The notes under the pieces are model-generated. The model saw nothing but the letters and a program-made list of their open reading frames with translations, was not told where the DNA came from and ran no database searches. Of a stretch of DNA of 64,000 nucleotides, positions 21,939-28,964 are shown one piece after another (the stretch's first letter is position 1; every line of letters begins with the position of its first letter). Source of the stretch: Bifidobacterium ruminantium DSM 6489. Lineage in GTDB: Bacteria; Actinomycetota; Actinomycetes; Actinomycetales; Bifidobacteriaceae. The stretch is from contig NZ_JDTK01000001.1 in NCBI RefSeq assembly GCF_000770925.1, positions 174,883-238,882 of the forward strand, read 5' to 3'. Both the position numbers and the translations under genes were made by a program.

Positions 21939-23456
21939 TTGTCAGACGTGAGACGGGAGATGGAACGGCTCCGGCCCGTATACGAAACCGGCGTGCTGCG
22001 ATTGCTGCTACGAGGCAATTCCATGTTGTACGTCGCGCTGCTGCGCTCGACGTTTGACCCACTCACCGGCGAACTGCCGCGCGAAATCGTGGAGGAACGC
22101 TTCGCGCGCAGTCTGGCAAGGCTCGCGGAAACCGGTGACTATACGCCCAAGGACGGGCAGACGAATGCGGAGGCCGCGCATGCGATCCTGTCCCAACTGA
22201 CGAAGGAAGGCGAAGGCGACTATGCCTGGCTCGCCAATTCGCTTGACATCGCCTCGCACCGATACCTGTATCGTCTCACGGCGCGTGCCCACCGCGCCAT
22301 CGAGGCGCTTGACCGGCTCGAGGACACCACTAAGGCGCTGTCCGGCGCGCAGGCCAACAGCATCATCATGGAAATCGAACATGCGCGCATGCAACTGACG
22401 GCCGACCCGCATGAACGCATCCGCCTGCTGGAACGCGACATCGAGGAGAAACAAAAGCAGATCGACGAGCTGAAGCACAGCGACACGTTGGACAAACTCA
22501 CCTCGCAACAGGTGGGCGACATCATCGGCGTCATCCACAACACATTGCGAGGCGTTCCGATCGATCTGCGCGAACTCGCGCTCGAGGAACGTGACCATGG
22601 CGACAGCCTGCGCCGCAGCATGCAATCGGGAACCATCAGCGTGGAGCAGGCTCTCGGCACCTACCATGACGCATATCACCGATCGTTCCACGAATCCGAC
22701 AGTGGTCGACGGTTCGAGGACGCGTTCCAAGTGATCGTCACCGATGAGGGCCGGCGTGAAATCGACGATGCAGTACGCGACATAGCGCAAAACCCGTATC
22801 TGGAAGGCGAGCCGGGCATCCTGCTTGCACAGGTGCGCGCCGAACTCAACCGCATATACGAAGGTATCGAGGACGTACGCAGACAGATCCGCATATCCGA
22901 CGAGGCCGTGAGCCGGCTGGTACGCCAGCAGACTGACACGCATTACCGCACCATGCTGGACAAGCTCCACAGATTGTTCGTGCGGACCAACGACGATGCG
23001 AAGAACCATCCTGGTTCGGCGGAATTCCCGTATCATACGGACACCGGCATGGCGCAGTTCCAGGCGTTGCCGTCGCGTCCGGCGAAATCGATGGCGCGTG
23101 CCACAACCGCCGGCCTGCAGGATGCGCCCACAGCGGAAATCGACGCGCCCGACCTCAAAACCATGGTCGAGATGTGCGGACCAAGGCTGACGCATATGAT
23201 TTCGCTCATCCGCCGTGATCCGGTGAGAACGTCGGACGGCATGTTCGTGGATATCGCAGCAAGCTTCAACAGGCTGCCACGCGCCGAACGGCGTGAAAGC
23301 GAGCTGATAGGATTCCTCAGCGCCATGCGGGCGCAGGACGGCTCGGCGAGCGCGGCATGGCATTGCGTATCGATTGACGGTGGAGAACGTGTATGGCGCA
23401 CCAGACCGGTTCTCGCCAGCGAATCGACGCTTGACGGCATCATCGAGGAGGGATGA
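21939..23456 (+). CDS. jetA: Wadjet anti-plasmid system protein JetA (DUF3375)
   Basis: Kleisin-like subunit of the Wadjet (Jet/Eps/Mks) SMC complex that recognises and cleaves small circular DNA. About 505 residues; it opens with a helical domain (PVYETGVLRLLLRGNSMLYVALLRSTF) typical of DUF3375, has a coiled-coil middle (HERIRLLERDIEEKQKQIDELKH) and a long C-terminal helical part ending in a winged-helix-like region (LTHMISLIRRDPVRTSDGMFVDIAASF). TTG 21939 is chosen because GGGGAAGGA precedes it by 11 bases; TTG 21918 is the upstream alternative. The stop is next to jetB, and all four jet genes are tightly packed. Confidence 0.9.
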   Translation: MSDVRREMERLRPVYETGVLRLLLRGNSMLYVALLRSTFDPLTGELPREIVEERFARSLARLAETGDYTPKDGQTNAEAAHAILSQLTKEGEGDYAWLANSLDIASHRYLYRLTARAHRAIEALDRLEDTTKALSGAQANSIIMEIEHARMQLTADPHERIRLLERDIEEKQKQIDELKHSDTLDKLTSQQVGDIIGVIHNTLRGVPIDLRELALEERDHGDSLRRSMQSGTISVEQALGTYHDAYHRSFHESDSGRRFEDAFQVIVTDEGRREIDDAVRDIAQNPYLEGEPGILLAQVRAELNRIYEGIEDVRRQIRISDEAVSRLVRQQTDTHYRTMLDKLHRLFVRTNDDAKNHPGSAEFPYHTDTGMAQFQALPSRPAKSMARATTAGLQDAPTAEIDAPDLKTMVEMCGPRLTHMISLIRRDPVRTSDGMFVDIAASFNRLPRAERRESELIGFLSAMRAQDGSASAAWHCVSIDGGERVWRTRPVLASESTLDGIIEEG

Positions 23457-23458
23457 GC

Positions 23459-24289
23459 ATGACGGATGATATCGACGACCAGGATGTCGGCGCCGAGACG
23501 ATGGACGGCGGGGAAACCGGATATCCATCGGAGGAGCCCACAACACCGCAGACCATGCCGGCGCTATTCGACGGCGATACCGGCGACATGCCGCTCGAAG
23601 CGCGCAGGGCCGCGATCGCGCTCAAACGCGAACGGTACATCGACGGCAGCCTGTACGAGCGTGCGTGCGAATACCGTGAGGCCGTGGAGCGCTCGCTGAA
23701 CAACGACATGCTCAGATTGGTCGACAACACGAAATACCGGATCATGTACGCGTCGCCCGTCACTGATTCGGAGACGAACATCCGCGCGCTGAAAACGCGT
23801 GTGAGCCTTACCCGGGAAGAGGCTGCCACGCTCGCGGCCCTGCGTATCAAGGTGCTGGAATATGAGAACCAGAAGGCCGAACCCGGCGACTGGCTCATCA
23901 GTTTCGACGACATCCGCGCGATGCTCGCCACAGGTGCGGGATTCCTCGCCGCCAGCAATGACGAGGAGGGTACGGCGAAGAAGATCGCCTCCGTCATCTC
24001 GCGTATGCGCACCTACGGGTATCTCGCGGACGCCGGCGAGACGAACATGTATGTGATCACTCCGCTGGTGCCGATGGTGCTCGACCGCGACCTTGCCGAC
24101 GAATGGCTTGGCTCCGGGAAGATGGATGACGCTGGCGGCATGGACGATACCGGTACCGAAGGCTTGTCCGATTTTGACGATGAAAATGACATGGCCGATT
24201 CGAATGGGATTCCGGCATCCGATGTTGAACAGGATGCGTTCGATTTCGGCATGGCCGACGATTTCTTTGATGGAGAGGAAAACCGATGA
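23459..24289 (+). CDS. jetB: Wadjet system protein JetB (DUF4194, KITE-like)
   Basis: Accessory subunit (KITE, tandem winged-helix) that binds JetA. 276 residues: an acidic, disordered N-terminus (about 1-40), a DUF4194 core (RRAAIALKRERYIDGSLYERACEYREAVERSLNN, LVDNTKYRIMYASPV, TREEAATLAALRIKVLE, VISRMRTYGYLADAGETNMYVITPLVPMVLDRD), and an unusually acidic C-terminal tail (about 212-276, rich in Asp, Glu, Met, Gly). ATG 23459 has the best spacing to GAGGAGG; ATG 23453 overlaps the jetA stop. The jetC start overlaps its stop. Confidence 0.9.
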   Translation: MTDDIDDQDVGAETMDGGETGYPSEEPTTPQTMPALFDGDTGDMPLEARRAAIALKRERYIDGSLYERACEYREAVERSLNNDMLRLVDNTKYRIMYASPVTDSETNIRALKTRVSLTREEAATLAALRIKVLEYENQKAEPGDWLISFDDIRAMLATGAGFLAASNDEEGTAKKIASVISRMRTYGYLADAGETNMYVITPLVPMVLDRDLADEWLGSGKMDDAGGMDDTGTEGLSDFDDENDMADSNGIPASDVEQDAFDFGMADDFFDGEENR

Positions 24290-27744: not shown

Positions 27745-27746
27745 CG

Positions 27747-28964
27747 ATGGCAAAGGCCAGGAACGCCAAGGACGGCATGAGCATCCGTCGGGAGCTCGAC
27801 GAATACGTCGACGCTCACCTCAACCGGCACATGTACGACACCGAAGTTTCCTGGCCCCTGCGCAAGACCATCCGTCTGCCCAAACAAGCCGAACTGGAGG
27901 ACAACTACGCGCGCGTTCGCGCCCAGGACGACGTCATCCGCGACTGGGCGAACCGGCATCAATGCGAAACCAGCGAAAAGACCAAAATCGTTTCCAGCGG
28001 AATCGTCCGACAGAAAAGCCAGCTTGTCGACTCGGTGATCATACCCGACCTCGACACGGCTCTCCGTATAGCGACAAGAACCACGCGCGAACGCTATCTA
28101 CGTGAGCGCCAACGCATGCGAGAACTCGCAGACGAATTCGGCATCAGCCAAGACAGCGCGTTGAATGTCGCCAAAACACTCAAGGATCATGATGACGTCG
28201 ATTTCCGTCTCGTCATCCAAGCCGCACACTATTTCACCCGACACGACTGCCACACCATGACCCCACGCATGGTGCCGATTCCCGGGTTCAGCGCCAAATG
28301 GCTCGGCACTCCCAATTCTCAGCGCCGCAAAGCGATATGCATGCTCACCGGACGGGACAACCTCGACTTCCAGGAACGCCCCGGCGAACTCCGACTACGA
28401 TTCATGGACGCCGAGCACCACGGCCAACCCGACCTCATCATCACCCAACCATGGATCCACAACAGACCAACCGACATCGCACACGCCATCATCATCGAAA
28501 ACAAAGACACCTACCAGGCCATGCCCACCGCCGCACACGCCATCTGCATCTTCGGCAGCGGATACGCCACCCTGAAACGCATGACAACCCTCCTGCCATG
28601 GGTCACAGACATTCCCGACATCATCTACTGGGGAGACATGGACGCCGACGGACTCGACATCCTCTCCAAACTCCGCCAAACCGGCATCCCATGCGCATCC
28701 CTGCTGATGGACCCTGCCGCCTACCGGGCCTATGAACGATACGGCACCATGCTCGACACGAAAAACAAGCCACTCACCACGCGAGAGTCCAAACCCACGC
28801 CCCAGCTCACCTCCGAGGAACGCGGACTCTACGAAATGCTCTGCACCGGAACCAATGCGACATACCTGCGAATAGAACAGGAACGCATACCCATTGCGGA
28901 CGCCGCGGCCATTCTGCATGACCAATACCAATGGCCCATCGCCATGCCCGATGACACCATATAG
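27747..28964 (+). CDS. jetD: Wadjet system nuclease JetD (DUF3322/DUF2220, toprim-like)
   Basis: 405-residue nuclease subunit related to topoisomerase VI A. The N-terminal DUF3322 arm domain (about 1-180) precedes a DUF2220/toprim domain whose metal-binding residues are visible: Glu251 in AIIIENKDTY and the DxD motif in YWGDMDADGLDIL (Asp297, Asp299, with Asp301). All catalytic acidic residues are intact, so DNA cleavage is expected. ATG 27747 follows GGAGGAG, two bases after jetC. Its stop codon's last base starts the SOS box of uvrA, and no terminator separates them. Confidence 0.92.
   Translation: MAKARNAKDGMSIRRELDEYVDAHLNRHMYDTEVSWPLRKTIRLPKQAELEDNYARVRAQDDVIRDWANRHQCETSEKTKIVSSGIVRQKSQLVDSVIIPDLDTALRIATRTTRERYLRERQRMRELADEFGISQDSALNVAKTLKDHDDVDFRLVIQAAHYFTRHDCHTMTPRMVPIPGFSAKWLGTPNSQRRKAICMLTGRDNLDFQERPGELRLRFMDAEHHGQPDLIITQPWIHNRPTDIAHAIIIENKDTYQAMPTAAHAICIFGSGYATLKRMTTLLPWVTDIPDIIYWGDMDADGLDILSKLRQTGIPCASLLMDPAAYRAYERYGTMLDTKNKPLTTRESKPTPQLTSEERGLYEMLCTGTNATYLRIEQERIPIADAAAILHDQYQWPIAMPDDTI

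What the first reader, a model, noticed from the sequence alone, without database searches (positions are those of the whole stretch)
21939..28964. Complete Wadjet (jetABCD) anti-plasmid operon in a Bifidobacterium chromosome
All four subunits are present in the canonical order A-B-C-D. The junctions are near-overlapping or overlapping, and the key residues are intact (JetC Walker A GASESGKST, signature and Walker B; JetD Glu251 and Asp297/Asp299). Wadjet destroys small circular plasmids, so this locus could be a real barrier to transformation of the strain and explain low plasmid carriage. JetB carries an unusually acidic C-terminal tail that may be lineage-specific.
Basis: partly seen in the sequence, partly recalled or inferred. 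Interest (0 to 1): 0.8.

Follow-up and report, generated by a model that had tools for sequence, protein, structure and literature searches.

The report
Plasmid-cutting Wadjet operon, nuclease often lost
This Bifidobacterium chromosome carries all four genes of Wadjet, a machine predicted to cut small circular plasmids; 24 of the 60 sampled species of its genus that carry the motor genes lack the cutting gene, which suggests that the cutter was likely lost many times while the motor kept some other use.

Summary
Window 21939-28964 holds a complete, intact type I Wadjet operon (jetABCD) in a Bifidobacterium chromosome. All four products score far above the Pfam cut-offs and match PADLOC type I models; profiles tie them to solved JetB, JetC and JetD/MksG chains, and weakly to JetA. 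JetD keeps its acidic residues and folds like MksG and JetD. By itself the locus is a new member of a known system.

The genus is more interesting. In 112 genomes, JetA and JetC occur in the same 60 species, JetD in only 36. The other 24 keep open jetABC with intact ATPase motifs; pairs of species that both lack jetD show dN/dS of 0.04-0.18 in jetABC. The JetC tree needs at least 14 changes of jetD. In two relatives at this locus jetC now runs into the LexA-like box that overlaps the jetD stop here. Four species carry a broken jetD (one perhaps a sequencing error). The window's genome has no Smc, ScpA or ScpB.

Inference: JetD is an optional weapon and JetABC likely has a use without it. A chromosomal role is possible but untested. 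Plasmid carriage could not be tested.

The parts
21939..23456 (+). jetA (kleisin, DUF3375), 505 aa, TTG start; GGGGAAGGA upstream fits a ribosome-binding site
   Evidence: profile match to solved JetA 8q72_E, weak, E 0.0082
23453..24289 (+). jetB (KITE subunit, DUF4194), 278 aa; N-terminal ALFDGD motif at residues 37-42, acidic C-terminal tail
   Evidence: profile match to solved JetB 8dk1_E, E 3.6e-5
24286..27744 (+). jetC (SMC-type ATPase), 1152 aa; Walker A GASESGKST, signature STGGKSGG, Walker B TLFLDEA
   Evidence: match to solved JetC 8dk2_C, E 9.8e-29
27747..28964 (+). jetD (nuclease; DUF3322 + Toprim JetD_C), 405 aa, E251 / D297 / D299
28963..28976 (+). LexA-like box AGAACACCTGTTCG overlapping the jetD stop codon, upstream of uvrA; marks the edge of the jetD deletion in relatives
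   Evidence: one mismatch to CGAACN4GTTCG (the consensus is recalled); present near the jetC end in 6 JetD-less relatives looked at
29041..32028 (+). uvrA; follows jetD (directly or within about 1.2 kb) in 11 JetD-bearing species, this one included, and follows jetC directly in 6 JetD-less species

Best explanation
The four genes form a complete type I Wadjet operon whose product is predicted to extrude DNA loops (JetABC) and to cut small circular plasmids through the Toprim nuclease JetD. SHOWN here: gene content and order, intact ATPase and nuclease residues, a predicted JetD fold like MksG/JetD, and purifying selection on the window's genes. SHOWN in the genus: jetA and jetC always occur together (the same 60 of 112 genomes) while jetD is absent in 24 of those 60 and broken in 4, and jetABC stay open and constrained without it. 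INFERRED: ATP-driven extrusion until the two motors meet on a small circle activates JetD (the published total extrusion model); jetD was lost repeatedly, likely because a nuclease that attacks extrachromosomal circles is costly or blocks useful plasmids; JetABC keeps a JetD-independent use, perhaps on the chromosome as proposed for MksBEF. The last step is the least certain.
For: Family and residue evidence. JetD fold. JetD in 36 of 112 genomes by protein search and in the same 36 by the Pfam profile; JetC in 60 of 112; JetA in the same 60, one match each and no stop inside. In 24 of 24 JetD-less species the best jetA, jetB and jetC matches hold no stop, and the ATPase motifs and the JetB A-(L/M)-F-x-x-D motif are kept in 24 of 24. 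JetD-less pairs: dN/dS jetA 0.04-0.09, jetB 0.06-0.09, jetC 0.09-0.18. At least 14 changes of jetD on the JetC tree, 13 on supported branches. JetC and JetD distances correlate, r 0.80, Mantel 0 of 999, so JetD mostly travels with its operon and absences look like losses. In 12 of 13 JetD+/JetD- comparisons DNA homology resumes at or past the end of jetD. In G028 and G052 the LexA-like box lies inside the jetC 3' end.
Against: No activity was measured. In C. glutamicum, MksBEFG was reported to act only on non-chromosomal DNA (PMC7083940, Discussion read). 15 species lack both JetC and ScpA, so neither complex is indispensable in the genus. The JetB motif that may contact JetD is kept in JetD-less species, which could mean recent losses or a JetD in trans. 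Some losses look young (G024/G073 jetC dS 0.20), and one mixed pair, G009/G051, has the highest values (jetA 0.30, jetC 0.35), which would fit some relaxation. JetD and JetC nearest neighbours agree in only 18 of 32 species, so some exchange of jetD is not excluded.
Confidence: 0.78

Rival explanations
1. JetABC without JetD is a chromosome-folding SMC complex (MksBEF-like), and in species without Smc-ScpAB, such as this one, the Wadjet core also serves as the main condensin.
For: Own genome lacks ScpA, Smc (only weak matches, best E 9.5e-7) and ScpB. jetABC constrained without jetD. A review proposes that P. [quoted passage not shown]
Against: 15 of 112 species lack both JetC and ScpA; JetC is not significantly tied to ScpA loss (25 of 40 ScpA- have JetC, 35 of 72 ScpA+; Fisher p 0.17). 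Absence of JetD is commoner in species that keep ScpA (19 of 35 against 5 of 25, p 0.009; p 0.20 if broken jetD counts as absent), the wrong direction for replacement, and it vanishes over 13 independent pairs. C. glutamicum data speak against a chromosomal role when MksG is present. MukBEF and other Wadjet types were not searched for.
Confidence: 0.3
2. The JetD-less operons are simply dying defence systems: jetD is lost first and jetABC will follow, with no independent function.
For: Some losses look recent (G024 against G073, G060 against G046). Broken jetA and jetD alleles exist in protein databases. G069 has an interrupted jetB.
Against: 24 of 24 JetD-less species have all three genes without stops in their best matches. 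Sister species that both lack jetD differ by dS 0.39-0.42 in jetA and jetC at dN/dS near 0.1 (G032/G055). No species has JetA without JetC or the reverse.
Confidence: 0.2
3. JetD is supplied in trans, or another nuclease has replaced it.
For: JetB keeps its A-(L/M)-F-x-x-D motif in 24 of 24 JetD-less species. G005 has JetD on another contig than JetABC, and G023 has a second JetD away from its operon.
Against: The JetD_C profile finds nothing anywhere in the 24 genomes. The most widely shared gene after jetC is uvrA (6 of 24); other sense ORFs are shared by 2-4 species.
Confidence: 0.15
4. The missing jetD genes are assembly gaps or missed divergent homologues.
For: Most genomes are drafts, and G041 has frame breaks in jetC and uvrA too, so its jetD break may be a sequencing error.
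Against: Every JetD-less locus has at least 5,990 bases of contig after jetC; G011 and G028 are single-contig assemblies; two methods agree on the same 36 genomes; homology resumes past the gap in 12 of 13 comparisons.
Confidence: 0.03

Closest known systems
Type I Wadjet, JetABCD (E. coli GF4-3, P. aeruginosa PA14)
   Same: Same four subunits, same A-B-C-D order, same kind of ATPase motifs and JetD acidic residues; sequence or profile matches to 8dk1, 8dk2, 8as8, 8q72 and 7til chains.
   Different: Far in sequence: JetA and JetB are not found in the PDB by single-sequence search at E 0.001. It sits beside uvrA. JetB has an acidic tail.
MksBEFG / EptABCD of Actinobacteria (C. glutamicum)
   Different: C. 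glutamicum lists the operon as mksGBEF and also has Smc-ScpAB (PMC7083940, passages); here the order is A-B-C-D and Smc, ScpA and ScpB are absent.
MksBEF without a nuclease (P. aeruginosa)
   Same: The 24 JetD-less relatives of this operon have the same make-up: kleisin, KITE and SMC without MksG/JetD.
   Different: The window's operon keeps an intact jetD. My searches showed no paper on a chromosomal phenotype of the bifidobacterial complexes.

Membership tests
Type I Wadjet (JetABCD) | JetA/DUF3375, JetB/DUF4194, SMC-type JetC and JetD (DUF3322 + JetD_C) all present | tested here: met
   Pfam scores above cut-offs and PADLOC type I models
Type I Wadjet (JetABCD) | One operon in the order A-B-C-D | tested here: met
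   Overlaps of 4 and 4 nt and a gap of 2 nt on one strand
Type I Wadjet (JetABCD) | JetC ATPase motifs intact | tested here: met
   GASESGKST, STGGKSGG, TLFLDEA
Type I Wadjet (JetABCD) | JetD Toprim acidic residues and fold | tested here: met
   E251, D297, D299 invariant in 21 JetDs; Foldseek and VIA matches of the predicted model to 8b7f and 7til
Type I Wadjet (JetABCD) | Cuts small circular DNA and lowers plasmid uptake | not testable with these tools
   Needs experiment; reported for other Wadjets in PMC10586767 (section 4 read) and PMC12287153 (passages)
Type I Wadjet (JetABCD) | JetABC dimer-of-dimers architecture | not tested
   Complex not modelled; the JetA model alone is poor (pLDDT 56)
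MksBEF (nuclease-free, chromosomal) | No JetD/MksG gene | tested here: not met
   jetD intact in the window; the feature is met by 24 relatives
MksBEF (nuclease-free, chromosomal) | Acts in chromosome organisation | not testable with these tools
   Needs deletion strains and Hi-C

The most novel reading that the evidence does not exclude
Bifidobacteria catch the change from plasmid-cutting Wadjet to nuclease-free SMC complex many times over: JetD is a detachable weapon on a JetABC motor that works on the cell's own chromosome, and in this species, which has lost Smc-ScpAB, Wadjet is both immune system and sole condensin.
Probability: 0.25. Interest if true: 0.85.

Novelty: new member of a known kind. 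Interest (0 to 1): 0.5.

Why it matters
[quoted passage not shown] A genus with at least 14 changes of jetD, visible deletion edges, and close relatives with and without it, some in hosts lacking Smc-ScpAB, makes both questions testable. It also bears on which bifidobacteria accept plasmids: jetABC alone does not show an active barrier, so annotation should check jetD.

Tried and rejected
Rejected: operon decay in the window itself (all frames open; dN/dS against G019 0.08, 0.23, 0.17 and 0.34 for A to D). Rejected: carriage on plasmids of the collection (JetD in 10 and JetC in 12 of 72,556 plasmid records, all under 60% identity, none Bifidobacterium). Rejected as proof: an early idea that only jetD breaks inside species. 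Protein clusters (the best 120 hits of each search) show frameshifted and deleted jetA alleles too. By member counts jetD breaks look commoner in the G061-like type (jetD intact P0013 1813 members against P0051 113, P0097 14, P0035 8 and small clusters; jetA intact clusters 1545, 386, 366, 41 and 35 against P0218 40, P0158 8, P0151 2 and singletons), but clustering and contig ends make these counts soft, and one jetA cluster of the other type, P0223 (173 members, residues 144-505 only), goes the other way. P0020 (jetD, 143 members) falls under that call's 88% filter and is probably frame-shifted.

Uninformative: plasmid initiator PF01051, the only such family tried, in 1 of 112 genomes; promoter and terminator scan at or below shuffle level; a search for tRNA-Gly repeats as an attachment site; JetA model pLDDT 56, not searched. 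No NCBIfam model fits the operon: the one listed hit, for JetC, lies far under its cut-off. Species names of genomes known only by handle (B. adolescentis, B. catenulatum and others) are recalled from genome size and not used as evidence. Not searched for: MukBEF, type II and III Wadjet, other plasmid initiator families, jetD neighbourhoods outside the genus.

Rows dropped: dN/dS cells that used a wrong overlapping frame or under 60 codons, or that gave no value (jetB of G028/G052, G061/G038, G003/G010, G010/G075; jetA of G060/G046, G006/G030; jetA and jetB of G035/G047). The pair G062/G063 stands under D+/D+ although jetD of G063 is broken. In the class-wide count 8 of 67 non-own matched genomes with fragmentary or weak JetA were left out (59 used, plus 2 from the phylum search). 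The tree is a quick one with long branches flagged.
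Full report
WHAT IS THERE. Four + strand genes fill 21939-28964 with 4-nt and 4-nt overlaps and a 2-nt gap. They are JetA (DUF3375), JetB (DUF4194), JetC (AAA_29 and SbcC_Walker_B) and JetD (DUF3322 and JetD_C), every match well above its Pfam cut-off and each best matched by a PADLOC type I model. One JetC occurs in the 2.23 Mb genome. The genus is Bifidobacterium: the nearest named relatives are Bifidobacterium records, and same-genus handles share contig lengths with them, e.g. G038:C8 and NZ_NJNQ01000005.1 at 203,207 bases.

HOW IT LIKELY WORKS. 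From the review section read (PMC10586767, section 4): JetABC is the SMC, kleisin and KITE motor; JetD is the nuclease; circles below about 50-100 kb are cut, and the total extrusion model says that two motors meeting on a small circle trigger JetD. In Clostridium cellulovorans native jetABCD lowers conjugation by about five orders of magnitude (PMC12287153, passages). Nothing here measures activity in this strain.

The acidic JetB tail is a genus habit: net charge of the last 60 residues is -18 here and -8 to -23 at 11 other Bifidobacterium loci. The end of jetB also carries GGAGAGGA just before the jetC start, so the terminal Glu-Glu may reflect a ribosome-binding site (inference). Plasmid carriage could not be tested. 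Wadjet being common in Actinobacteria (42% of genomes against 7% elsewhere) is known (PMC10482375, passages).

THE NUCLEASE COMES AND GOES. In 112 genomes of the genus, one per species, JetC is found in 60, JetA in the same 60 and JetD in 36; the JetD_C profile finds the same 36. So 24 of 60 have JetABC and no JetD anywhere. In all 24 the best jetA, jetB and jetC matches hold no stop. Walker A, signature and Walker B are intact in 24 of 24, and so is the JetB A-(L/M)-F-x-x-D motif, found in 34 of 36 JetD-bearing species. It may correspond to the IFDR motif of JetB that is reported to touch JetD (PMC10586767; the equivalence is my inference). The contig continues at least 5,990 bases past jetC in every case. 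No shared replacement gene follows: uvrA follows directly in 6 of 24 and some 3-4 kb on in two more, and other sense ORFs are shared by 2-4 species. Of the 36 JetD genomes, G005 has JetD on another contig than JetABC, and four have a broken jetD: a frame shift near codon 90 in G001, a stop in G020, frame breaks in G041 (also in jetC and uvrA, so perhaps sequencing error) and a remnant in G063. JetA shows one match without a stop in 60 of 60; jetB is interrupted by about 3.9 kb in G069.

LOSS RATHER THAN GAIN. On a quick JetC tree of 60 species jetD needs at least 14 changes, 13 on supported branches (shuffled mean 19.0; 2 of 500 as low, so presence is somewhat clustered; long branches are flagged). 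Counts of changes cannot by themselves tell loss from gain. JetD and JetC distances correlate (r 0.80, 32 species, Mantel 0 of 999), though nearest neighbours agree in only 18 of 32, so some exchange is not excluded. Of 14 DNA comparisons, 13 set a JetD+ against a JetD- species: in 12 homology resumes past jetD, within about 120 bases of its end in six and 760-1,030 bases beyond it in the other six; G023/G111 showed no downstream homology. At this very locus, window position +1223 after the jetC stop (jetD ends at +1220) matches G028 at -11. The LexA-like box that overlaps the jetD stop in G000, G019, G061 and G038 lies inside the jetC 3' end of G028 and G052, and 18-66 bases past the jetC stop in G059, G071, G068 and G004. 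That is what deletion of jetD would leave.

JETABC IS STILL UNDER SELECTION. Between species that both lack jetD (five pairs), dN/dS is 0.04-0.09 (jetA), 0.06-0.09 (jetB, four pairs) and 0.09-0.18 (jetC). JetD+/JetD+ pairs give 0.09-0.22 for jetA and 0.09-0.30 for jetC; mixed pairs 0.08-0.30 and 0.09-0.35, highest in G009/G051 (usable cells). For G032/G055 and G028/G052, sister species on the tree, a shared loss is the simplest reading; for the other JetD-less pairs it is not certain, because JetD+ G073 lies among them. Outside the genus, 30 of 61 chosen Actinobacteria with JetA have JetD_C, so cores without JetD_C seem common in the phylum; neighbourhoods were not checked there.

NO SMC-SCPAB. 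The window's genome (99.99% complete) has no ScpA, no ScpB and no Smc beyond weak matches; ScpA is missing in 40 of 112 species. Of the SMC-type complexes searched for, JetABC is the only one in this genome; MukBEF and other Wadjet types were not searched for. Against a simple takeover: 15 species lack both JetC and ScpA, JetC is not significantly tied to ScpA loss (p 0.17), and jetD loss is if anything commoner where ScpA remains, a trend that disappears over independent pairs. In C. glutamicum MksBEFG was reported not to act on the chromosome (PMC7083940, Discussion read).

MOVEMENT. The jet block is 98-100% identical between G019 and G001 while parts of uvrA and the start of uvrC fall to 82-85%; G061 and G041 show the same pattern. 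This points to recent exchange between species by recombination at the flanks (inference; no genome-wide baseline was computed).

IN PRINT. Searches for Wadjet with Bifidobacterium, Wadjet/frameshift/JetD, MksBEF/MksG/JetD, Bifidobacterium/ScpA/condensin/SMC and loss of JetD listed no paper whose title or abstract deals with JetD loss within a genus or with bifidobacterial Wadjet; the library is open-access only, and the review's one remark on MksBEF was the nearest.

VERDICT. The window holds an ordinary, complete and probably working Wadjet. The genus pattern is a natural experiment on whether the Wadjet motor has a life without its nuclease.

Noticed in passing
whole genome G000; 40 of 112 same-genus genomes: ScpA is absent in the window's genome and in 40 of 112 species of the genus; Smc and ScpB are absent in the window's genome too. 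In G014 smc is in decayed pieces.
   Followed up: partly
28963-28976: LexA-like box overlaps the jetD stop codon and precedes uvrA; in JetD-less G028 and G052 it lies inside the jetC 3' end.
   Followed up: yes
L063, L065, L066, L069: jet block 98-100% identical between G019 and G001 and between G061 and G041, with much lower identity in parts of uvrA and beyond: likely recent exchange between species.
   Followed up: partly
L153: 4585-9184: In G069 jetB is interrupted by about 3.9 kb of other DNA.
   Followed up: no
L074 and L098: G005 has JetD on another contig than JetABC, and G023 has a second JetD away from its operon.
   Followed up: no
28001-29000: The jetD region has the strongest skews of the window's 1-kb blocks (GC skew -0.27, AT skew +0.30), so its reading strand is rich in A and C.
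   Followed up: no
protein clusters P0006, P0015, P0021, P0029, P0031, P0044, P0048, P0051, P0055 and others: Many different frame-shifted and internally deleted jetD alleles exist in public protein sets; jetA alleles of this kind occur too.
   Followed up: partly
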